A stretch of DNA of 64,000 nucleotides, taken from contig JAJLRJ010000014.1 in the NCBI GenBank assembly GCA_024195265.1, positions 26,639,181-26,703,180 on the forward strand. The letters are read 5' to 3'. Shown here in pieces: positions 14,690 to 31,067 of this stretch; position 1 is the first letter of the stretch, and every line of letters starts with the position of its first letter. The translations under genes were made by a program, and so were the position numbers. Source of the DNA: Dendrophyllia cribrosa. Lineage: Eukaryota; Cnidaria; Anthozoa; Scleractinia; Dendrophylliidae. The notes under the pieces are model-generated. The model searched no databases. It saw only the letters and a list, made by a program, of their open reading frames with translations, and was not told the origin of the DNA.

Positions 14690-15416
14690 CGGCTCGTGTT
14701 CTGATAACTTGTTACAGAGCACGACCACGAACGCAAACGCGACCGCGAACGCGAACGCGGCGTTCGCATTGGATTGCGTATAAACAATTTGTATGAATCC
14801 GTTTATACCAAAGGCGACCACGAACGCGGCTGGAAATTGGTTCATGCGGAAAGTCTCAGAGATTGCTTCAAGAGCGGATTTTTATGCGATGGTCGCACGA
14901 GCTATTTCTTGTCAACCAATCGGTTCTTTTGTTTTCGTGCAACTCGATCCAGGTGACACGCGGGTACGCGTAAAAAAAATGACTTTGTAGCGCACCGGTT
15001 GACAACATCATCATCTTCTATCAGTCCCAGCACGTAGTCGAACTGTTCCTCTGTCATTCTGAAGTAGCGATGAAACTTGTCTGGGTGGAAATGAAGCTCC
15101 TTTACGTAGGTGGTGGTATTCTCCATAAATAAGACGCTTCTGTAAAATCGGGTGAACAGATATATGCCTGTATATCCTCTTCCTTCTCCTCTGTGTGAAA
15201 AGGTAAAATGCCAAAATGTCATCAGAATCTGTATTTGAGGCGTTTGCTGCCATTTTCATGAGATGGTGCATGGCAGCACATATTGCGACTGTCACAGCCC
15301 GAATTACCGCGTTCTGTATGAAAGGTGGTTCGTGCGAACTTTCGAGCGGAAAGTCGCGCGGAACTTGCAATGGTCGCGTTCGTAGTCGTGGTCGCGCTCT
15401 GTATAAACAGGCCTTA
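14690..15416 (-). mobile_element. Non-autonomous PIF/Harbinger-like element with broken transposase N-terminus
   Basis: TIR-like ends: ACAGAGCACGACCACGAACG at 14714 and, on the other strand, ACAGAGCGCGACCACGACTA at 15402. Outer limits are approximate. The minus strand encodes RRRKRIYRHISVHPILQKRL, GEYHHL and KELHFHPDKFHRYFRM, EEQFDYVLGLI, the pattern of the N-terminal part of a Harbinger (HARBI1-like) transposase. The two halves are in different frames, with the shift near 15107-15115, and the DDE catalytic part is absent. The element is therefore a dead deletion derivative. Confidence 0.65.
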
Positions 15417-15943: not shown

Positions 15944-16235
15944 TAGAGCGGTTTTCAATTGAGTGTCGTAAAACCAAAACCAAAGTAATTACTCTGACCA
16001 ATCACAGAACTCGCAGACAATCTGATGAACCAAACAGAACTCGAAGCAAATACATGTAGCCGGCCCCAAGCGCGGGAAAACGGGTGCGAGCAAGTCACGA
16101 TTGGTTTTGGTTTTACTTCTGATTGGTTAATAGATCTAAAGTGGCGCGAGATTTTTTAGCCAATCACGAAGCGTAGCAATGCAAAACCAAAGCAATTGCG
16201 AGATTACTTTCGATACTCAATTGGAAAGCGTTCTA
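15944..16235. mobile_element. MITE family A, copy 2
   Basis: It begins TAGAGCGGTTTTCAATTGAG and ends CTCAATTGGAAAGCGTTCTA, with GTAAAACCAAAACCAAAGTA, CCAATCACAG, CATGTAGCCGGC, CCAAGCGCGGGAAAAC and CTGATTGGTTAA inside. Its right end is included in the 448-bp tandem duplication that follows, so a 40-bp stump of the MITE reappears at 16641-16683. Confidence 0.9.
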
Positions 16236-17083
16236 TATACATATGCAATATATTAATTAAAACCACAGTTAGCTTAAAACACCTACGATATATAACAGTT
16301 AAAGATTCTTGTGTTACAACACTTTACTTAAACTTACTTACAGTTCATACATATAATTCTTACCAAAAAGTGCGTGAGTTGCAGATACAATTGTACATTT
16401 GAGTATTGCAAAGCAGTACGTGACAAAGGAATACAATAATATTAGAAATGTAGTAATATCCTGCCTGATCAGCGACATAACAGGTAGTTTCAAAATTGAA
16501 ACGAACAACAGTAAAAGGAAAATGCTCACGGTAGTAAGGTAAGATGCTAGACGAGCCTCCATTCGCAAGCGTTGTCCATTTGCATCAAAATTTCTCTCCT
16601 GAGAAACTATGTTGTACTTATTGCCGCGTGGAGATTGGAGCAATTGCGAGATTACTTTCGATACTCAATTGGAAAGCGTTCTATATACATATGCAATATA
16701 TTAATTAAAACCACAGTTAGCTTAAAACACCTACGATATATAACAGTTAAAGATTCTTGTGTTACAACACTTTACTTAAACTTACTTACAGTTCATACAT
16801 ATAATTCTTACCAAAAAGTGCGTGAGTTGCAGATACAATTGTACATTTGAGTATTGCAAAGCAGTACGTGACAAAGGAATACAATAATATTAGAAATGTA
16901 GTAATATCCTGCCTGATCAGCGACATAACAGGTAGTTTCAAAATTGAAACGAACAACAGTAAAAGGAAAATGCTCACGGTAGTAAGGTAAGATGCTAGAC
17001 GAGCCTCCATTCGCAAGCGTTGTCCATTTGCATCAAAATTTCTCTCCTGAGAAACTATGTTGTACTTATTGCCGCGTGGAGAT
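16193..17083. repeat. Tandem duplication, 448-bp unit, two copies
   Basis: CAATTGCGAGATTACTTTCG occurs at 16193 and again at 16641, and the sequence between is repeated without a difference that I could see, to about 17083. The unit starts inside the end of MITE family A. The near-identity suggests a recent event or an assembly artefact. Confidence 0.95.
16338..16643 (-). pseudogene. Possible 7TM-receptor fragment in the duplicated unit
   Basis: The minus strand of each 448-bp copy encodes the same frame (second copy 16786-17016 and upstream). It has QERNFDANGQRLRMEARLAS followed by two hydrophobic segments (LTTVSIFLLLLFVSILKLPV and FLILLYSFVTYCF) and ends FGKNYMYEL. The layout recalls the third intracellular loop, TM6, TM7 and short tail of a rhodopsin-like GPCR. 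The usual NPxxY motif is not present and there is no upstream receptor body. It is either a degenerate fragment or a chance frame. Confidence 0.25.
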
Positions 17084-17883: not shown

Positions 17884-18101
17884 CTAGCTCATTTCACACG
17901 TCCAGTTCATATCACAGCATTCCCCCGGGATTCGCTTGACCTTTAAGGTTGGGTTGATGCAGTTATGAGGAACAGGAGGGGGGCCTGGGCACTGTTTATT
18001 ATGCAGGAAGCCATTTCTACATTCCATGACGACTGCGCATGACGCGTCCGTGAGTTTCTCACCGTGCGATAACTTGAGGCCGTCATACTTACAGCTTTTG
18101 T
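17884..18101 (-). CDS. Exon 8: third VWC-like module and stop
   Basis: The exon is too fragmented to stand out as an open frame; it was found from the acceptor TCTCTCTCAG followed by DKSCKYDGLKLSHGEKLTDA in phase 1. It ends with IPGECCDMNWTCEMS and TAG. The eight cysteines and the GECC..NW.C signature match exons 6 and 7, which confirms the frame and the gene end. Confidence 0.85.
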
Positions 18102-21100
18102 CTGAGAGAGATAAGACTTTGTATTTACACGTAATCTATTTCATTTAAAATACTAAAGGTCCAGATAAGTCGTCTGAATGCTGTCAATTCAGAAAATTGA
18201 ATACAACAATTCAGAGTCCGATTGCGCAAAGAGAGAATAACACTATCCAACGGACAGGTTAAAATCCACCGTTTACTGACACTCACAAAACCAATTGTGT
18301 TATCCTCTTGATAGACATTTATTCGATCGATAGCGCTATTCACCTTTTGAACAACGGTGACAGAATGTTTTAACATTTAGAAGTTTCTAAAATTTAATGA
18401 CCAAATTGATATATCCTAACACGTTTTCATCGAAGTTTGAAACATGTGAGTTCTCATCTTCGTTATATCTGAATATAGCTTATATTACTTTTACTACAAA
18501 TGGCCATGATTTTGACGGTTCGACAGCCTAAAAAGCGAAGAGCAGCTTATTTTATCCGGTGGATAAACTACTGAATTTGACTGAATAATCTTTGGATAAT
18601 GATTTCTAACTGGATAAAGTTTTACGTATGTTTCTTTTTGTACAATCTGAGGTCTGACTAATCTCAGTTACCTGAACAAACCCAAAGTTTTTTGCAGCAT
18701 TTTCCGGGAATACTTATCGTCTTTAGTTTTGGTCGTGCGCAATCCTTAGGTTTGTCTGGTATTTTTGGGCAGTATTCCATCTTTAAATGTCCATTGTAAC
18801 AGCTGACAACCCCAGTACAAAGAGGATCGCTTAGTTTGTATCCATGCTTGATAAGACGATTGTTAAAAATACAGTGCCTTGCTAGAATACAAAACAAAAC
18901 AAAATTAAATAGTTACTTTGCTTTTATTTTAAAAGAACTCCTTCTCGCGCCCTAAGCATTCACGTGCCTTCCTAGGCTGTCAGGGGAGAGGGGGGGAGGG
19001 GGGGGGGGGGGGGGGGGGTCGTCAGGGGGTATTGGGGCAAAAAAAAAATTGCCAAACCCAGGACCTCCTAAAAGGAGCCTCTTCACATGCTGGTGCCCTT
19101 CACCTTTCGCGGTGAACAACTGCTACACAAGCTAGGGTGAATCAGTCGGATTTAGAGAAGCAAAAGTATGGCTGGATTTCTTAAACTGCGTTCGTTTTGG
19201 GAAATTCGAAAACTCCGGCCGGTTCAGATTTGTGAAGCATGCGCAGAGTACTCATTTTCGATTGTCGGCTAGTCATGCCAGATTTGAGCGGAATAAACTC
19301 TGAGTCTGGGCCGCAGAGCGACTTTCAAATTGGAACCGGCCAGAGTCTGTGATCCGTGGCGCTGGCCAAAAGGATCGCGGCTAGAATGGGAACGTTGTGG
19401 ACGCCAATTTTTAGATTCCCTTTTTTTGTTTTTTTGAGAGCGGGAAATCCAAGAAATCTGGATCACTAGAATTTCCCCAAATGAATACACCCTCTGGGAA
19501 AGTTACCTTTACACTTCCATTTCATCTGACAACACTTTCCACTGTGGTGTTTAACAAGTAAACGTGGCTTAGCGCATTCGTCAGGTTTAGGTGGGATTCC
19601 TGCGCATTTTTTTACAGTAGCGATACCGTCTTTACATCTCACCACTCCACCGCACAGTTCACCACTCCATTGTTCGTTATTTCGCAGTGTGAGGTTTCCA
19701 TATTGGCAGTGGAACTCTGAAATACGAAGGTAAAGGTAAAGTCGCACATGAGTCACAGGACACCCATACCGCCTGAGCAATGACCCGGTTTCTGTAGCAT
19801 GAAGCAATTAGGAGTATTACTACTCCTATCCCCAGGATTATGTCGCCGGCACCCATTTATACTCCCGCTATATACACCCCTATATACACCCACTATATAC
19901 ACCCACTATACACCACCGCGCCTCCAATATATATTAAGTAGTGAAGATCAGGAGTAAGGTGATCATCAAACGGGCGTTTGTCTCTGGTTTCTCAAGCATG
20001 AAGCGATGAGGTATAAGTGAATATCATTGTACCCTCTCCTTCTGGACTGGTACTATCAACTCTTGTCGACTTCTTGAACATCTTTTGTATTTTATTTTAT
20101 GTTAAAGGAAAATGCTGATCAATAGTTTCATTTAAATTGTTACACAAAAGATAGAATCGCCTTCTTAAACATGTTTATCAACAGCACCACATGAAGGTAC
20201 TGCTCATTTGAATAGTTACACTTTGGAATTTTTTTTTTTTGCAGAATCAAGATAATCACTGGTTAGAACAACTTTGTATAGCATTATCAACTCACTGGCC
20301 CCAAGAAGACAAGTTTCTCTTGTCGAATTATCCACTGCCGGAATTCTAGTTATTTGCGGGTAGCCACTATATTTTGTTTTATTATTTGAAAAATAAATTG
20401 TTGTTGTTGTTGTTGACGCCAAATTTAAGTACTACCCAACAGCTTTGATTTGAGTGGTGATACTTTAGAAGCTCTTTAGCCTGTGTACAGCCGCCACTCA
20501 AGAAAATCGGATTTTTCTTCAGGTGAGGGGGCGGCTGTATACAGGCTAGAATATCTTTCACAGGCTCAAAAATAAAACATTTCAACAAAAATCAAACTTC
20601 ACTCCACTGAACATAGGTCTGCAAGGCTGCAAAGGCCACTAATCTATAGGTACTATACCTTGATTTCTCTCGATGTCCCCTCTCTTTTGTCCTTTATTAA
20701 CGAACCCAAGCTGTGAGAAGATGAAGTGCGGGTGGGGCACTGGAATAGCTTGACAAAGGTCCTCGCTGTAACAGGCCACTCCATAGCACCGCCCGTCAAT
20801 CAAAAGTGCAACGTCACACGTTTGCTTGGAACAGCACCGCTGAAGACATGCGTGCATGCTTGCGGTCTCGCCCAAAACGTCGAAGCGACCAGCCCGAGTC
20901 CCACCTTTTAATGAATGCCCGGCCAAAATTCTGTCTGAATGACACGTTGATGGGGCAGCTGAAATCATGTCAAAGATAGATATTCAAAGACAAATCAAAT
21001 GGCTCTTATATCTATCTCGTGAATACGAAACAACGTACGGTTAAGTTCACAGATCGGCATTAGTTTTCCATACTGAATTTGAAGCGTGACAAAATCATGA

Positions 21101-24100
21101 TGCATTGTGTGAAACAAGACTGTCTGACAACTGAATGACGTAATACACTGGGGAATTAAAAAAGTTTACATCTGAGTGATTAATTGAACGAAAATTTGCA
21201 TAACTGTCCCGTATACTATATCTCGTTCAACGCTTCGCGTATTCACGAGATAAAAATGCTATTACTACATAATGTAGAAAAAAAGGCACATCAACTCTTG
21301 CTAAAACCTTAACCACAGTAGAAAGGAAGAATCATAACTAGCTAATCACTGCAGTCAAAAGGTGTTTCTTGAGTACAAGCTAGAAGAGACAAAGAAGCGC
21401 AAAACAGCGTCATCAAACACAATTTAATCAATACAATCGACAACGACATACCGTTCGTCAGTCAATATTACACAGAGCGGTTTTCAATTGAGTATCGAAA
21501 GCAATTTCGCGATTGCTTTGGTTTTGCATTGCTACGCTTTGTGATTGGCTAAAGCGTCTCCCGCCACTTTCTCAACCAATCAGAAGTAAAACCACGCTTA
21601 CACGCGTTTTCCCGCGCTTGGCATCGGGTGCATGTATTTGCTTTGAGGTCTGATTGGTTCATTGGCAGGAATGCCTCTGTTGTGATTGGTCAGAGTAATT
21701 ACTTTGGTTTTGGTTTTACGGCAATCAACTGAAAACAGCTCTAATCATTCAACATTTCAATAATCCTTCTTTAAAACGTCATAACAAAATTTCATTAAAC
21801 GTTTGTGATATTCTAAAACAATCTACAAAATAAAAGTGAATTGCGTGACATACTATACCTTTGCTGACAGGCTTGATATGCGTGACTTTTGCATGACTTT
21901 TCACCACATGTGGGTGGGTGACATGAGCTGCCAAATACTTATTGTGTAGTTTCTTTTTGACAAGGTGTGGTGACCCTTTCGAAGTTCTATTGGGCTCTTT
22001 CTTCGTAAGTTTGTTATGTAGTGATGTATTTTGAACTTTTATGTGTTCAGATTTTCCTTTGTTTTTCTCTGTGCTCTTCGCCTCATCTTTATGTATCTCG
22101 TGTAACGACGCAACTTTATGTTGTGTTGATTTTGCATCAACCGCATCCTTGCCTTTACTGGCTACTGCCTTTTTGTTTTCTTTATTACCCCCTTTGTCGT
22201 TTTGCTCATTTTTCTTGTGTATTGCGACTTTTTCTTTCGCTTCTTCCTTAACAGAGGCACGAGTCTCGGTCATGTTTTTAGGGTGTGGCTTTGAGATGGG
22301 GTGTATTGATTTGGGCCGTATCCCGATGTTACCACTCCCTTTGTCCATTCGATCATTTTTATTCTGTATTGTGTCTTCTTCTGTCGCTTTTTTCTTGGCA
22401 GAGGTATGAGTCTCGACTCCAGTCATGTTTTTTAGGTGTGGCTTTGAGATGGGGTGTACGGAATCGTGTTGTACCTCGTTGTTACCACTTCCTTTGTCAA
22501 TTCGATCGTTTTCCTTCTGTGTTGTGACTTTTTCTTTCGCTTCCTCCCTCGCAGAGGTATGAGTCTCGACTCCGGTCATGTTTTTAAGGTGTAGCTCAAA
22601 GATGGGGTGTTCCGGTTCGAGCCGTGCCCCGATGTTACCACTCCCTGGGACAAACCTACTCGAGGAGCCAGAATCCTGGCCTGAAATTTCTTCATCATCA
22701 TCCTGTTCTGAGGTGTTTTCTTCTTGCTCCACGTCTTTGGTTTCTTTGAGTATCATTTTTGTCAAGTTCCTTGACCTGATAGCAACGTGTTCATCGTTGT
22801 GTTTTATTTTCTCTTGCTCGTCTTCTCCTTCATCACTATCATTTATTTCACCTTTGTCCACTGAAGTATCTTCGTCACCACTGTCCTCCTCCCCAGAAAC
22901 ATGCTGTCTGTTAAAAGAAAGAACTATGCTTTTCAATTTGAAATGCAATTGCAGGAAACGGCAATGAAAGAAGAACTTGTGGTTGACTGACTGACTGACT
23001 GACGGACTAAATGACTGACCAACTAAATGATGGGCTGACTGACTAACTAACCAACAAAATGACAGACTGACTGACTGACGACCTGAATGACTGTCTGACG
23101 GACTGAGTGACGAACTGACTGACTGACGGACTGACTGACAGACTGACGGACTGACAGACTGACGGACTGACGGACTGACTGACGGACTGACGGAATGACT
23201 GACGGACTGACTGACGGACTGACGGATTGACTGACGGACTGACGGACTGACTGACGGATTGACTGACGGACTGACGGACTGACGGACTGACTGACTGACG
23301 AACTGATGGACTGACGGACTGTTGAACTGACTGACGGACTAATAGACCGACTGACAAGTCACTGACTGATTGACAGACGTATTAAATGACTGACTGTCTG
23401 AACAAACCAGCGAGCGAACGAATGAAAATAATAAGCGCTTGATGACTTGTTAAACTGTTTTCGTGATAGCGTTTTAATTTCTGACTCACACAGCCGCTCT
23501 GAAAGTGTTTGGAGTCATCTGCAACTGAAGATACTCAATTTTACCTTGCAAATAGCCCTTGATCTCTGGCCTCAGCACTTCCACTTCCGCTTCCGCTTCC
23601 ACTGCTTCTGCCTACATTATCATCAGACGAGCCGGATTCATCTGCACTGGTATCAACAGCTGACTGCTGTTGATGCGGGCTCGTGTGTTTTCCACTCAAC
23701 TGGCGGATCTCATCCTTTTTATGAACAACCGATGAACCAGACCCTTTGGCGAGACTGCGTCCCAGGCTTTCGCTACCATCGTCTTCGTCATCATCCTCAT
23801 CAAAGAATCCTTCATCGCCAATGTCACCATCATCATCCTCGTCGTCATCATCAACATTGTTTATCCCAGGGGTATGATTACCTATGATACGCAGATAATC
23901 CCCGGGATCATCCATGGAGTTCTTTTCCGAGTTCCCTGGGATGTCGGAGTCTGGTGCAATATCAGCTGAAAATGAGGATATTTTGGCATTGACATGAAGT
24001 GCAGTCATTTCTCAATGGGTCAGGTTCGCTTTTGCTTAACTCCCATACGCTCTAGTGGGAGGAGATTTTCCTATACTGAAAGCTATTTTTTTTAGGGAAT

Positions 24101-25906
24101 GGAAAAAATTGTACATTGAAACACTTGAGCCGAGCTTAGAAAAACCGTATATAGAATAGTTCCTAAGAGCCTATAACCTCTGGACTTCAGTGTACAACTC
24201 CACAAGGAGTTTTTTCTGTATGGAAATCCCTGCGACTCATCGTAGACACGAACAATGTTAAAGGCCACCTGCTACAAAAAAAGCTTGCGAGAAAAAAAAT
24301 GGCCCATACATATGGGTTTATAAACGGGGAAAGTTTGAGTTCTGGTTGCTACACCTCCATGCTCAAGATTCTCAAAAGTATTATCAATATACATAAGGAC
24401 ACGTTTCAAAGTCTTAGTAAAGCCGCGCACGAGCCACAGGTGGCCGGTTTCCGTAGCATGAAGCAACTAGGAATATTGCTACTCCCCCCTGGATGGAATG
24501 CTGGTCCATTGCAGGGTTACCCCCAGCATTTTGTCGCCAGTACCCATTTATACACCTGGGTGGAGAGAGACAATGTGGAGTAAAGTTTCTTGTCCGAGGA
24601 AACAACACGACGGCCGAGACCTGGCTTGAACCACCGACCTTCAGATCTGAAGTCCAACGCACTCACCCGCCACCGCGCCTCTTAGAGGGAGGCAAGAACA
24701 AAATTGCGAGCCACGGACCCTGAGGTCTTCAGCCGTGCGCGCGCATCTAGACAGACTTGGTTGGGGATTGATTGGGGACTAAGCCTATTTGAGGTCTAGA
24801 CTCGCCACTAGACTACTACGCCTCCACAGTGCTAAAATAAAACTTACAGTCATATTCTGAATATGGCGGAACAACTTACCATTTACGTTCAAAATGGCAT
24901 AAGCGAATACAACCTAGAAGATAACAAAATGGTATCGTTATGAGGGAGGAGACTTATAAATGAAACGAGTTACGTGTAAAACCTCTGTTTTAGCCTGTGT
25001 GATCGGCGCTAGCGTTAGAAAGGGAGGGAAGGGGCGTTTTCAGTGCGCGCGCCCTAATCCACACTTCTTTCCCTTTTTATAGCGCCTGTCACGCAGGGTA
25101 TACTTATTTAGGCCGGAAGGTACTGCTCAGTACCTTTAATCACAATGGTCACACTATTGGATTTCATCCGCATACTCAAAAGTAAGAACTACCTTGTACG
25201 GCATAACAAACAGCACCACAGGAAAGTACTGCTCAATAGCTTTTATTTGAATCACGGATCACACTTTAGGGTTTCATCCACAGACTCAAAAGTTAGAACC
25301 ACCTTGTACAGCAAAATAAACAACACCAAAGGAAAGTACCGCTCAATAGCTTTCATTTGAATGACCACATTTTCATCAACAGACTCAAAAGTTAGAACCA
25401 CCTTGTCGACAGCATATTAAACAGCACCACAGGAAAGTACTGCTCAATAGCTTTCATTTGAAAGGTCACACTTTAGGATTTCATCCACAGACTCAAAAGT
25501 TAGTACCACCTTGTACAGCATAATAAACAGCACCACAGGAAAGTACTGCTCAATAGCTTTCATTTGAATGATCACACTTTAGGATTTCAGTCAACAGACT
25601 CAAAAGTTAGAACCACCTTGTACAGCATAATAAACAGCACCACGGGAAAGTACTGCTCAATAGCTTTCATTTGAATGATCACACCGTAGGATTATATCAC
25701 AGACTCAAAAGTTTAAACCACATTACGCGATCGCGTGAATTAAATAAAGCCGTTTTAACGAGGGTTCACTGGACAGGCTGTCCTACTGCTACTAACCTCC
25801 CTGGATCGGTGTGTTTAAATGGAGTGTCAAAAAACACATTAAATTAATATCAATGACTTACCATAAAGACCACAAGAAATGCAAAGCGGAATTCCAAATT
25901 TTTCAT
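17884..25906 (-). CDS. Secreted acidic MANEC + triple VWC-like domain protein (8 exons)
   Basis: Reconstructed CDS, in coding order: 25906-25862, 24913-24880, 23965-23545, 22907-21859, 20958-20659, 19716-19507, 18881-18672, 18101-17884 (stop TAG). It totals 2487 bp and 828 residues, with consistent phases (0,1,2,1,1,1,1) and GT-AG sites throughout. Exon 1 and the 34-bp exon 2 encode a signal peptide (MKNLEFRFAFLVVFMVVFAY). Next come an acidic Asp/Glu run and a Ser/Gly stretch (about 27-166), an acidic then Lys-rich region with three 51-residue repeats (about 255-405), a MANEC/MANSC-like cysteine module (about 517-616), and three 8-Cys VWC-like modules (617-686, 687-756, 757-828). The four cysteine modules are each one phase-1 exon, typical of shuffled extracellular domains. 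No TM segment follows, so it is predicted secreted. A matrix role is inference. Introns carry SINEs, MITEs and satellites. I know no named homologue. Confidence 0.88.
18230..18625. mobile_element. Degenerate copy of the GGATAAATC palindromic element
   Basis: Inside the last intron, CACTATCCAACGGACAGG, ACAAAACCAATTGTGTTATC, GATAGCGCTATTCACCTTTTG and AACAACGG match one unit plus the right end of the element at 3404-5011. A second, weaker match (TTATCCGGTGGATAAAC) is at 18551-18567. Confidence 0.7.
18672..18881 (-). CDS. Exon 7: second VWC-like module
   Basis: A 210-bp phase 1-1 exon with the same length as exon 6. Eight cysteines: ARHC, DPLC, VSC, EYC, KDC, GKCC and WVC. Acceptor TGTATTCTAG, donor GTAACT. 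Confidence 0.88.
18989..19018. repeat. Poly(G) tract
   Basis: A run of about 30 bases that is almost entirely G, within the intron between exons 6 and 7. The true length is uncertain in any assembly. Confidence 0.9.
19507..19716 (-). CDS. Exon 6: first VWC-like module
   Basis: A 210-bp phase 1-1 exon. Eight cysteines in FHCQYG, GELC, VVRCKDG, VKKCAG, DECAKP, GKCC and KWKC, a von Willebrand C-like pattern ending in the CC..W.C signature. Acceptor CGTATTTCAG, donor GTAACT. Confidence 0.88.
19735..19930. mobile_element. SINE fragment (headless) plus TATACACCC repeat
   Basis: CCGGTTTCTGTAGCATGAAGC followed by GGAGTATTACTACTCC, CCCAGGATTATGTCGCC and ACCCATTTATAC matches the body of the SINE at 24415-24682. 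The tRNA-like head is missing, and a short TATATACACCCACTA tandem follows (about 19865-19912). Confidence 0.6.
20477..20548. mobile_element. Hairpin MITE, 72 bp
   Basis: TAGCCTGTGTACAGCCGCC faces GGCGGCTGTATACAGGCTA across a short spacer, so the element is almost one hairpin. It lies in the intron between the MANEC exon and the first VWC exon. Confidence 0.8.
20659..20958 (-). CDS. Exon 5: MANEC/MANSC-like cysteine domain
   Basis: A 300-bp phase 1-1 exon (100 residues). The motif order STC, HACLQRCCSKQTCDVALLID, RCYGVACYSEDLCQ matches the MANEC (seven/eight cysteine) domain known from HAI-1, LRP11, MANSC1 and KIAA0319-type proteins, in particular the CC....CD.A......C.....C....C core. Acceptor ATGATTTCAG, donor GTATAG. 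Confidence 0.85.
21474..21743. mobile_element. MITE family A, copy 3
   Basis: AGAGCGGTTTTCAATTGAGT to AACTGAAAACAGCTCT, with GCATTGCTACGCTTTGTGAT, GTTTTCCCGCGCTTGGC and AATTACTTTGGTTTTGG inside. It sits in the intron between the repeat exon and the MANEC exon. Confidence 0.9.
21859..22907 (-). CDS. Exon 4: acidic then Lys-rich region with three 51-residue repeats
   Basis: A 1049-bp exon (phase 2 to 1; acceptor CTTTTAACAG, donor GTATAG). It begins acidic (QHVSGEEDSGDEDTSVDKGE). Three imperfect repeats of 51, 51 and 49 residues span 22193-22645, each starting GSGN and carrying HPIS/HPIF, a KNMT motif (an N-glycosylation sequon in all three) and a K/E-rich helix-like end. A Lys/His-rich region follows. 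The low-complexity, highly charged composition suits an extracellular, possibly mineral- or matrix-associated, unstructured region. That is inference. Confidence 0.85.
22985..23400. repeat. GACTGACG-type microsatellite/minisatellite
   Basis: GACTGACTGACGGACTGACG and variants run for about 400 bp within the intron between exons 3 and 4. The minus strand is open as a Ser-Val-Gln-rich frame only because of the repeat. Confidence 0.95.
23545..23965 (-). CDS. Exon 3: acidic Asp/Glu run and Ser/Gly stretch
   Basis: A 421-bp exon (phase 1 to 2; acceptor TCATTTTCAG, donor GTAAAA). It encodes the mature N-terminus (DIAPDSDIPGNSEKNS), then NNVDDDDEDDDGDIGDEGFF and DEDDDEDDG, then a Ser/Gly region (SSGSGSGSGS). 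Such acidic runs are known from calcium-binding matrix proteins; no specific family is claimed. Confidence 0.85.
24415..24682 (-). mobile_element. tRNA-derived SINE with tRNA-Leu-like head
   Basis: Read on the minus strand, it starts near 24682 with GAGGCGCGGTGGCGGGTGAG (A box) and GGTGGTTCAAGCC (B box), with a Leu-like anticodon arm GGACTTCAGATCTGAAG. The body then includes CTCCACCCAGGTGTATAAAT and GGGGGAGTAGCAATATTCC. It lies in the intron between exons 2 and 3. Confidence 0.75.
24880..24913 (-). CDS. Exon 2: 34-bp micro-exon completing the signal peptide
   Basis: Acceptor TATCTTCTAG, then codons VVFAYAILNVN and one further base (phase 1), donor GTAAGT. It joins the exon 1 h-region to the exon 3 acidic N-terminus; the split codon becomes Ala. 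The continuity of a hydrophobic signal peptide and the phases support it. Confidence 0.8.
24993..25099. mobile_element. MITE with AGCCTGYGTNNCNGGCGCTAG ends, copy 1
   Basis: TTAGCCTGTGTGATCGGCGC and TATAGCGCCTGTCACGCAGG form imperfect TIRs around GAAAGGGAGGG...CTTCTTTCCC. A relative lies at 31099-31200. Confidence 0.6.
25105..25725. repeat. ~106-bp tandem array of the TTAA-family unit (reverse orientation)
   Basis: GGAAAGTACTGCTCAATAGC recurs at 25221, 25331, 25432, 25538 and 25645 (spacing 101-110). Each unit has ATTTGAATGGTCACAC, ATCCACAGACTCAAAAGTTA and CCTTGTACAGCATAATAAAC. It is the reverse complement of the unit amplified at 29311-30975, but with an extra ~18 bp. It lies in intron 1 of the secreted-protein gene. 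Confidence 0.9.
25862..25906 (-). CDS. Exon 1: start codon and signal-peptide h-region
   Basis: ATG at 25904-25906, fifteen codons MKNLEFRFAFLVVFM, then donor GTAAGT. The ATG is the only one upstream that gives a signal peptide in phase with exon 2. Transcription start not determined. Confidence 0.8.
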
Positions 25907-26774: not shown

Positions 26775-27710
26775 ATGCGGGCCACCTAAATCATTGGGAA
26801 TCTACATTGACCAAAATTTATCATGGTTCAAACATGTTGACGAAATTACCAAGACCATTTCTTCTGGTACACTTAAGGCTTAAAGGCTGAGGCCCTTTAC
26901 AAGTGATGACACGGCTATTCTTCTTTATAATTCAACACAATGATACACTGCCCAAATATGGTCAAAAAGTTATCGATATACGCTATGTCTACATGACGTA
27001 TATCCAACGATGGAGGTAAATTGAGAATGCAAAAATGACGGACCGGCCTCGATATTTTTTCTTCAAACTGTGCTTTGTTATCAATGTGTTGAATTATAAA
27101 ACTATTATTGCGCTCAAGCTTGCGTGATATCGCCTGGCGATATCACGCGCGCTTTCGCGCTATAATGGTTAAATATCGAGCTCTCATCGAACCGCACTTC
27201 GACTACTGCCGCCCTGTGTGGGACGGTCTTAGTATCGAATTGGCCGATAAGCTGCAAAAACTACAAAATCGCGCCATTAGGGTTATCACTGAGTCTGATT
27301 TTTATTCTATAGTGCTACTACCCTTCGCACTAGACCACTCTACCAGAAGGAAGAAAATTAAAGCGAAACTAATGTTTAAAACTGTAATCAATCAAACTCC
27401 GGAGTACCTTCAAGGCCTGTTTACGCCTTTCAGCACAGACTATGAACTTAGAGACAAAGAAAACAAATTCTGTCTGCCCAAGCCCCGTACAGATTTTTTA
27501 AAACGCAGTTTTTGCTACAGTGGGGCACTGTTGTGGAATAATCTTCCACGGAATGTCAGAGCCATTATATCTTATAAAAAGTTTAATAACGAAATCAATC
27601 GCCTTATGTCCACCTCGTACTCCCACACGGCAAACATGTAAACCAGTTTTTATCTTCTTTGTAACTGATGTCTTTACCGTGTTTAAATAAAGTTATGTAT
27701 GTATGTATTA
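26775..27710 (+). mobile_element. LINE reverse-transcriptase C-terminal end, interrupted
   Basis: Translation from about 26790 gives LGIYIDQNLSWFKHVDEITK and, after an in-frame stop, RLRPFTSDDTAILLYN. Homology resumes at 27165 with KYRALIEPHFDYCRPVWDGL, ADKLQKLQNRAIRVIT and ALLWNNLPRNV, the canonical end of a CR1/L2-type ORF2. Between (about 26931-27164) an unrelated insert has inverted ends ATTCAACACAATGAT / ATCAATGTGTTGAAT. The 3' UTR ends AAATAAAGTTATGTATGTATG. Dead copy. Confidence 0.8.
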
Positions 27711-29259: not shown

Positions 29260-31067
29260 TTAACCCTTTCACTTTCATTCCCAGTCAATTATGGATACAT
29301 GTAGTGTAGTTCTAACTTTTGAGTCTGTTGATGAAATCCTATGGTGTGACCATTCAAATGAAACCTCTTCAGCAGTACTTTTGCATGGTACCATTTGTTC
29401 TAACTTTTGAGTCTGTTGATGAAATCCTATGGTGTGACCATTCAAATGAAACATCTTCAGCAGTACTTTTGCATGGTACCATTTGTTCTAACTTTTGAGT
29501 CTGTTGATGAAATCCTATGGTGTGACCATTCAAATGAAACATCTTCAGCAGTACTTTTGCATGGTACCATTTGTTCTAACTTTTGAGTCTGTGGATGAAA
29601 TCCTATCGTGTGACCATTCAAATGAAACCTCTTCTGCAGTATTTTTGCATGGTACCATTTGTTCTAACTTTTGAGTCCGTTGATGAAATCCTATGGTGTG
29701 ACCATTCAAATGAAACCTCTTCAGCAGTACTTTTGCATGGTACCATTTGTTCTAACTTTTGAGTCCGTTGATGAAATCCTATCGTGTGACCATTCAAATG
29801 AAACCTCTTCAGCAGTACTTTTGCATGGTACCATTTGTTCTAACTTTTGAGTCCGTTGATGAAATCCTATCGTGTGACCATTCAAATGAAACCTCTTCAG
29901 CAGTACTTTTGCATGGTACCATTTGTTCTAACTTTTGAGTCCGTTGATGAAATCCTATAGTGTGACCATTCAAATGAAACCTCTTCAGCAGTACTTTTGC
30001 ATGGTACCATTTGTTCTAACTTTTGAGTCTGTTGATGAAATCCTATGGTGTGACCATTCAAATGAAACATCTTCAGCAGTACTTTTGCATGGTACCATTT
30101 GTTCTAACTTTTGAGTCTGTTGATGAAATCCTATGGTGTGACCATTCAAATGAAACCTCTTCAGCAGTACTTTTGCATGGTACCATTTGTTCTAACTTTT
30201 GAGTCTGTTGATGAAATCCTATGGTGTGACCATTCAAATGAAACATCTTCAGCAGTACTTTTGCATGGTACCATTTGTTCTAACTTTTGAGTCCGTTGAT
30301 GAAATCCTATGGTGTTGACCATTCAAATGAAACCTCTTCAGCAGTACTTTTGCATGGTACCATTTGTTCTAACTTTTGAGTCTGTTGATGAAATCCTATA
30401 GTGTGACCATTCAAATGAAACATCTTCAGCAGTACTTTTGCATGGTACCATTTGTTCTAACTTTTGAGTCTGTTGATGAAATCCTATGGTGTGACCATTC
30501 AAATGAAACATCTTCAGCAGTACTTTTGCATGGTACCATTTGTTCTAACTTTTGAGTCCGTTGATGAAATCCTATGGTGTTGACCATTCAAATGAAACCT
30601 CTTCAGCAGTACTTTTGCATGGTACCATTTGTTCTAACTTTTGAGTCTGTGGATGAAATCCTATGGCGTGACCATTCAAATGAAACCTCTTCAGCAGTAC
30701 TTTTGCATGGTACCATTTGTTCTAACTTTTGAGTCTGTTGATGAAATCCTATGGTGTGACCATTCAAATGAAACCTCTTCAGCAGTACTTTTGCATGGTA
30801 CCATTTGTTCTAACTTTTGAGTCTGTTGATGAAATCCTATGGTGTGACCATTCAAATGAAACCTCTTCAGCAGTACTTTTGCATGGTACCATTTGTTCTA
30901 ACTTTTGAGTCTGTTGATGAAATCCTATGGTGTGACCATTCAAATGAAACCTCTTCGGCAGTACTTTCCTTAAGTACTATTATTATTATTATCAATATTT
31001 TACAAAATAAGATTTAGGATTTTCCTTATATTTTGCTTTTTGACATTTTTGGGAGTGAAAGGGTTAA
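29260..31067. mobile_element. TTAA-flanked TIR element internally amplified: 19 x 88-bp repeat
   Basis: Ends: TTAACCCTTTCACTTTCATTCCCA at 29260 and TGGGAGTGAAAGGGTTAA ending 31067, i.e. TIR CCCTTTCACT flanked by TTAA. Inside, TCTAACTTTTGAGTCTGTTG recurs from 29311 to 30897 with an 88-bp period; two intervals of 89 bp each have an extra T in GGTGTTGACC. That makes 19 units ending near 30975. Single or few-copy relatives lie at about 7600-7900, 38229-38562 and 60481-60656; a reversed array is at 25105-25725. TTAA target sites are a hallmark of piggyBac-type elements; family assignment is tentative. Confidence 0.88.

What the first reader, a model, noticed from the sequence alone, without database searches (positions are those of the whole stretch)
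17884..25906. Secreted protein joining an acidic repeat region, a MANEC domain and three VWC-like domains
Eight exons spliced in silico give an unbroken 828-residue reading frame with matching phases. MANEC domains are known from membrane proteins with LDL-A, Kunitz or PKD domains; I know no named protein in which one is followed by three 8-Cys VWC-like modules and preceded by Asp/Glu-rich and repeat sequence. The charged, secreted layout would suit an extracellular-matrix or skeletal-matrix protein, which is inference.
Basis: partly seen in the sequence, partly recalled or inferred. Interest (0 to 1): 0.75.

Follow-up and report, generated by a model that had tools for sequence, protein, structure and literature searches.

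The report
Secreted coral MANEC–VWC-like matrix protein
This is a real and so far unnamed protein of corals and a sea anemone, very probably secreted, built from a long charged tail, one MANEC-type domain and three VWC-like domains; because a sea anemone without a skeleton has it too, it is probably a general extracellular-matrix protein and not a skeleton-making one.

Summary
Eight minus-strand exons (25906..17884) splice with GT/AG borders into exactly 828 residues. Seven database proteins share the design: Oculina, Stylophora, Acropora, Nematostella and three unnamed. The three unnamed ones lie on contigs under 3 kb, too short for such introns, so they look like spliced transcripts across the architecture (inference); that favours one gene over two. 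The eight-cysteine domain passes Pfam's KIAA0319_N cut-off (E 3.3e-12); the MANEC model itself stays below its cut-off. The three C-terminal modules are repeats of one another with identical cysteine spacing. They resemble VWC weakly by profile and modestly by fold and lack the ten-cysteine pattern, so 'VWC-like' is right. The acidic stretch recurs in the relatives; the tandem repeat is an expansion seen only in the window. A skeleton-specific role is unlikely, since Nematostella has the protein. My reading, inferred: a secreted matrix protein whose tail may carry glycosaminoglycan on Ser-Gly sites, with a cysteine-rich ligand-binding end. The gene sits in databases as 'uncharacterized'; the searches made here found no paper on it. 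Moderate interest.

The parts
25862..25906 (-). exon 1: start codon and first part of signal peptide (residues 1-15)
   Evidence: aligned with the starts of P0001 and P0002; hydrophobic peak at residue 8
24880..24913 (-). exon 2: end of signal peptide
   Evidence: aligned with P0001 and P0002
23545..23965 (-). exon 3: Asp/Glu-rich, Ser-Gly-rich region
21859..22907 (-). exon 4: rest of acidic region, 51-residue repeats and basic Lys/His-rich linker
22190..22646 (-). three copies of a 153-bp (51-residue) in-frame tandem repeat inside exon 4, residues 254-406; the second and third copies have almost no counterpart in the seven relatives
20659..20958 (-). exon 5: eight-cysteine MANEC-type domain, Pfam KIAA0319_N; phase 1-1 exon
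19507..19716 (-). exon 6: VWC-like module 1; phase 1-1 exon of 210 bases
18672..18881 (-). exon 7: VWC-like module 2; phase 1-1 exon of 210 bases
17884..18101 (-). exon 8: VWC-like module 3 and stop codon

Best explanation
A gene, one copy in the window, for a secreted extracellular-matrix protein of stony corals and a sea anemone. Shown: the gene model, its conservation, the eight-Cys domain, three mutually homologous cysteine-rich modules, no transmembrane-like stretch after the signal peptide by a hydropathy scan, and a tail that is acidic (residues 27-270, pI 4.1) then basic (271-516, pI 9.9). Inferred: the protein is secreted; the tail reaches into the matrix, may carry glycosaminoglycan chains on Ser-Gly sites that lie among acidic residues, and binds cations or basic partners; the cysteine-rich C-terminal end (MANEC-type plus three VWC-like modules, disulfides inferred) holds a protein partner, most likely another matrix protein or a BMP/TGF-beta-type ligand, as VWC modules of other proteins do (recalled).
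For: Gene model. Seven relatives, 61-90% identity over 98-100% of residues 517-828; same cysteine spacing 17-5-9-9-13-0-5 in all 22 modules extracted (8 first, 7 second, 7 third; P0006 gave no second or third) and 8 cysteines in the MANEC-type domain in 8 of 8. KIAA0319_N above cut-off in the window protein and in 7 of 7 relatives. The three modules align with one another at 38-39% identity (hhalign). Model of P0005: from residue 311 on, ten-residue means of pLDDT are 71-90; nearest single-domain structures are the vWC domains of CCN3 and collagen IIA. N-terminal hydrophobic peak in the window and in 5 relatives; beyond residue 40 no 19-residue mean hydropathy exceeds 1.33 in any of the 8. Ser-Gly 14 against 4.2 expected from shuffles, acid-flanked Ser-Gly 6 against 2.1 (p 0.0135); acid-flanked p<0.05 in 6 of 8 proteins.
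Against: No expression, localisation or biochemical data. Ser-Gly enrichment is modest; the proteins are related, so the 6 of 8 are not independent; P0002 (p 0.24) and the truncated P0005 (p 0.16) are not significant; plain Ser-Gly is below 0.05 in only 4 of 8; GSGSGSGS runs inflate the window's count. The acidic part of the tail was not modelled, since P0005 lacks it. VWC assignment is sub-threshold, and fold scores are modest and tied with other small domains. The MANEC-type part of the model is poor (ten-residue means of pLDDT at most 64, several under 50). Nothing here tests ligand binding.
Confidence: 0.55

Rival explanations
1. A coral skeletal organic matrix protein that binds calcium through its acidic tail and is built into the aragonite.
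For: Signal-like N terminus, Asp/Glu-rich tail with runs of Asp, presence in stony corals; the most acidic 100 residues hold 32 Asp+Glu in the window and 31-40 in five of the six scleractinian or unnamed relatives, all but truncated P0005.
Against: Nematostella, which makes no skeleton (recalled), has the protein (61% over residues 517-828) and an acidic stretch of 37 in 100. Whole protein pI 6.91 and 15.2% D+E, against pI 3-4.5 described for coral acid-rich proteins (PMC8086859, passages read). Search for MANEC with 'skeletal organic matrix' found no paper, but supplementary proteome tables could not be read.
Confidence: 0.12
2. A nematocyst (stinging-capsule) or gland-cell protein: cnidarian MANEC protein NSP5 is a nematocyst protein, and nematocysts are rich in cysteine-rich and chondroitin-bearing proteins (latter recalled).
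For: NSP5, a MANEC protein from the Hydra nematocyst proteome, exists in Anthozoa, Medusozoa, Myxozoa and Polypodium (PMC6134521, sections 5 and 19 read).
Against: No NSP5 sequence was predicted to have a signal peptide, ours has a signal-like start; no VWC-like module is mentioned for NSP5 in the sections read; our three protein searches returned no named medusozoan. NSP5 itself was not compared.
Confidence: 0.13
3. A secreted BMP/TGF-beta modulator first of all (chordin- or NELL-like), with the charged tail as a matrix anchor.
Confidence: 0.2

Closest known systems
Uncharacterized proteins LOC144630083 (Oculina patagonica), LOC111328157 (Stylophora pistillata), LOC107356341 (Acropora digitifera) and a Nematostella vectensis predicted protein, 'MANSC domain-containing protein' in UniRef
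   Same: Same architecture, presumably orthologues (61-90% identity over residues 517-828)
   Different: Tail differs in length and sequence; the second and third copies of the window's 51-residue repeat have almost no counterpart; Stylophora lacks the N terminus and Acropora is partial with modules 2 and 3 disrupted
KIAA0319 / KIAA0319L (MANEC-type N-terminal domain, PKD repeats, membrane anchor; layout recalled)
   Same: Same domain family, PF23597
   Different: No PKD match and no membrane-spanning stretch seen here; VWC-like modules follow instead
Tandem-VWC proteins and single VWC domains (NELL, CCN3, collagen IIA)
   Same: Among the best fold matches of the C-terminal modules
   Different: 8 cysteines instead of 10 (recalled); Pfam VWC below cut-off in the window
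NSP5, cnidarian nematocyst MANEC protein
   Same: MANEC domain in the middle of a cnidarian protein
   Different: No signal peptide predicted in NSP5; no VWC-like modules mentioned in the sections read; direct comparison not made

Membership tests
MANEC superfamily, KIAA0319_N type (PF23597) | profile score above Pfam cut-off | tested here: met
   46.5 bits against 27 in the window protein; 7 of 7 relatives above cut-off, 38.7-47.1 bits
MANEC superfamily, KIAA0319_N type (PF23597) | eight conserved cysteines | tested here: met
   8 cysteines in 8 of 8 proteins
MANEC (PF07502) | profile score above Pfam cut-off | tested here: not met
   16.1 against 25.5 bits for the whole protein, 18.3 for exon 5 alone; domain pieces of 8 of 8 proteins match, best E only 0.0012
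KIAA0319 protein family | PKD repeats and a transmembrane segment (recalled) | tested here: not met
   no PKD family at E up to 1; no transmembrane-like hydrophobic stretch past residue 40
VWC (PF00093) | profile score above Pfam cut-off | tested here: not met
   19.9 against 27.6 bits in module 1 and no match in modules 2 and 3; of 12 modules scanned (of 22 extracted) 3 match at E up to 1, best E 1.3e-4
VWC (PF00093) | ten cysteines with CxxCxC and CCxxC motifs (recalled) | tested here: not met
   8 cysteines, spacing 17-5-9-9-13-0-5 in 22 of 22 modules examined
VWC (PF00093) | VWC fold | tested here: inconclusive
SVWC (single-domain VWC, 8 cysteines; recalled) | profile match | tested here: inconclusive
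   not among the 4 Pfam families matched at E up to 1 by the 12 modules; HMMER filters may drop weak matches
coral acid-rich proteins (CARP/SAARP) | pI 3-4.5 of the protein (PMC8086859, passage) | tested here: not met
   whole pI 6.91; residues 27-270 alone pI 4.09
coral acid-rich proteins (CARP/SAARP) | more than 100 residues with about 30% or more Asp+Glu, or orthology to such a protein (PMC8086859, passage) | tested here: inconclusive
   whole protein 15.2%; most acidic 100 residues 32%; residues 27-270 67 of 244, 27%; orthology to a CARP not tested
proteoglycan core proteins | Ser-Gly sites in unstructured regions (PMC10570366, passages) | tested here: inconclusive
   14 Ser-Gly, 6 acid-flanked; the acidic part was not in the model, P0005 lacking it; its remaining tail has pLDDT under 50
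proteoglycan core proteins | attached glycosaminoglycan chain | not testable with these tools
   needs biochemistry
NSP5 | orthology to the Hydra nematocyst protein | not tested
   NSP5 sequence not obtained

The most novel reading that the evidence does not exclude
A hexacoral part-time proteoglycan: an acidic-to-basic bipolar tail with glycosaminoglycan sites, fused to a KIAA0319-type MANEC domain and an eight-cysteine VWC-like module type of its own, acting as a matrix organiser or growth-factor reservoir in the mesoglea.
Probability: 0.25. Interest if true: 0.5.

Novelty: new variant of a known kind. Interest (0 to 1): 0.35.

Why it matters
It puts a KIAA0319-type MANEC domain in a protein with a signal-like start and without PKD match or membrane anchor, shared by corals and an anemone and so probably old in Hexacorallia. 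If the proteoglycan reading is right, it would be a cnidarian core protein apart from the well-known perlecan, glypican and syndecan kinds (recalled), open to test in Nematostella. It also warns against reading every acidic secreted coral protein as skeletal.

Tried and rejected
Two separate genes: rejected, since P0001, P0003 and P0004 (longest contigs 2549, 2845 and 2871 bases) hold tail and cysteine-rich part in one reading frame and can hardly contain introns such as these. Further genes of this type in the window: tblastn with the C-terminal part found only the four C-terminal exons and their cross-matches. Other weak Pfam matches, all below cut-off and not credited: Xlink on third-type module (best E 0.0058, 3 of 12 modules; 0.017 in the window), CBM_14 (0.13, 0.071 in P0004), DUF6897 (0.16), PAN_3 (0.3, 3 of 8), Phage_terminase (0.082 in P0001). 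Solved relatives by sequence: none for the MANEC-type domain; for the modules only four chance-level MASP-2 rows at E 0.15-0.16. Plant-defensin-like rows for model residues 225-266: low-confidence part of the model, not credited.

Wider relatives: a search with the Nematostella protein and one with the seven-sequence alignment returned the same seven proteins only. These searches need shared exact words and fit a length window, so restriction to Hexacorallia is not proven.

Literature, word searches of one open-access library: MANEC with cnidaria 3 papers, of which PMC6134521 bears on the question; MANSC with coral 25 papers, 20 listed, among the listed only PMC6134521 relevant; MANEC with skeletal organic matrix 0; Nematostella with chondroitin, core protein and proteoglycan 11 and Nematostella with matrisome and von Willebrand factor 3, used to find PMC12549020; the three LOC numbers 0; MANSC domain or five cnidarian terms, any two, 3,251 papers, 10 listed, none of these with 'MANSC domain'; MANSC with KIAA0319 7 papers, 5 listed, none on cnidarians by title; glycosaminoglycan sites 6; skeletal organic matrix with VWC 2, the word in PMC8086859 being in a cited title. 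The Nematostella matrisome paper PMC12549020 has no MANSC, MANEC or VWC in its main text, the Stylophora cell atlas PMC8162421 none of five such terms.

Full report
Gene model. Each of the seven introns begins with GT and ends with AG, and phases match. Exons 5, 6 and 7 each begin and end in phase 1 (300, 210 and 210 bases), and exon 8 begins in phase 1; each of the four holds one domain. That is the pattern expected of exon shuffling and tandem exon duplication (established knowledge; its application here is inference).

Support from relatives. A search with residues 517-828 gave seven protein clusters at E 1.7e-132 or better: Oculina patagonica LOC144630083 isoform X2 (90% identity), Stylophora pistillata LOC111328157 (81%), Acropora digitifera LOC107356341 (71%, partial), Nematostella vectensis (61%) and three without a species name (90, 85 and 83%). 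With P0001-P0004 the alignment runs from the signal peptide to the stop, with gaps in the tail. At the joins of exons 1/2, 2/3 (LNVNADIAPD), 3/4 (FARQHVS), 4/5, 5/6, 6/7 and 7/8 there is no gap between the window and P0001. P0001, P0003 and P0004 have longest contigs of 2549, 2845 and 2871 bases, too short to hold such introns, so they are most likely assembled transcripts (inference). P0005 lacks the N terminus, and P0006 lacks its N-terminal start and clean second and third modules; both are taken to be incomplete gene models.

Eight-cysteine domain. Pfam KIAA0319_N (PF23597) matches at E 3.3e-12, 46.5 bits against a cut-off of 27; MANEC (PF07502) reaches only 16.1 of 25.5 bits. KIAA0319_N is above cut-off in 7 of 7 relatives. 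Eight cysteines are kept in 8 of 8 proteins. So the domain is of the MANEC type that Pfam names after the N terminus of KIAA0319, but here it sits in mid-protein, with no PKD match and no membrane-spanning stretch seen.

Tail. Residues 27-270 have pI 4.1, residues 271-516 pI 9.9, the VWC-like part 9.1, the whole protein 6.91. The change from negative to positive net charge recurs in 6 of 6 relatives whose tail includes the acidic part (P0005 lacks it). A 153-bp, three-copy in-frame tandem repeat covers residues 254-406. Opposite its first copy the relatives have 22-47 letters, opposite the second 0-2 and opposite the third 0-10, so the extra copies look like an expansion in this species' lineage. 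Ser-Gly pairs: 14 against 4.2 expected in shuffles (none of 2000 as high); acid-flanked 6 against 2.1 (p 0.0135). Acid-flanked Ser-Gly has p below 0.05 in 6 of 8 proteins (not P0002, not truncated P0005), plain Ser-Gly in 4 of 8. The rows are related and the shuffle ignores clustering. Xylosyltransferases act on Ser-Gly in unstructured regions, and acidic residues after it favour heparan sulfate (PMC10570366, passages). Hence the proteoglycan proposal, which is inference.

Function. Best reading: secreted matrix protein, tail possibly glycosaminoglycan-bearing, cysteine-rich end binding a partner. Skeletal role: Nematostella has the protein, acidic stretch included (37 of 100 residues). Coral acid-rich proteins are described as having about 30% or more acidic residues and pI 3-4.5 (PMC8086859, passages); here the whole protein has 15.2% and pI 6.91, but its most acidic 100 residues have 32%, so a local likeness exists. 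A role in calcification that was added later in corals is not excluded. Nematocyst role: NSP5 is a cnidarian MANEC protein from the Hydra nematocyst proteome (PMC6134521, sections 5 and 19), without predicted signal peptide; no direct comparison was made.

Species. A tree of the C-terminal part puts the window with P0001, P0003 and the Acropora row at support 80/90 (not among the starred branches); highest identity 91% to Oculina. The window is most likely from a stony coral (inference). The own-genome search could not be reached, so copy number is unknown beyond this window, where only one copy was found.

Verdict. Real and correctly read gene; in databases but uncharacterized; no paper on it was found by the searches listed under Tried and rejected. 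New combination of known or near-known domain kinds; moderate interest.

Noticed in passing
window 16191-17083: A 448-base unit is present twice in tandem (100% matches): a very recent duplication or an assembly artefact, downstream of the gene's 3' end.
   Followed up: no
window 29309-30967 and 25115-25721: An 88-base satellite of 18.8 copies (97% matches) and, in intron 1 of the gene, a 106-base repeat of 5.7 copies (85% matches). Read by eye, the two look like one repeat family in opposite orientation.
   Followed up: no
window 22984-23401: Intron 3 holds a degenerate TGACTGAC minisatellite of about 52 eight-base units; it lies in the open frame upstream of exon 4 and would read as SVSQSVSPSV repeats, but the gene model and relatives leave it out.
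   Followed up: partly
window 14902-15255 (-) and 27093-27641 (+): Two ORFs flanking the gene look to me like transposon and reverse-transcriptase remnants (by eye, from memory); Pfam found no family at E up to 0.01.
   Followed up: partly
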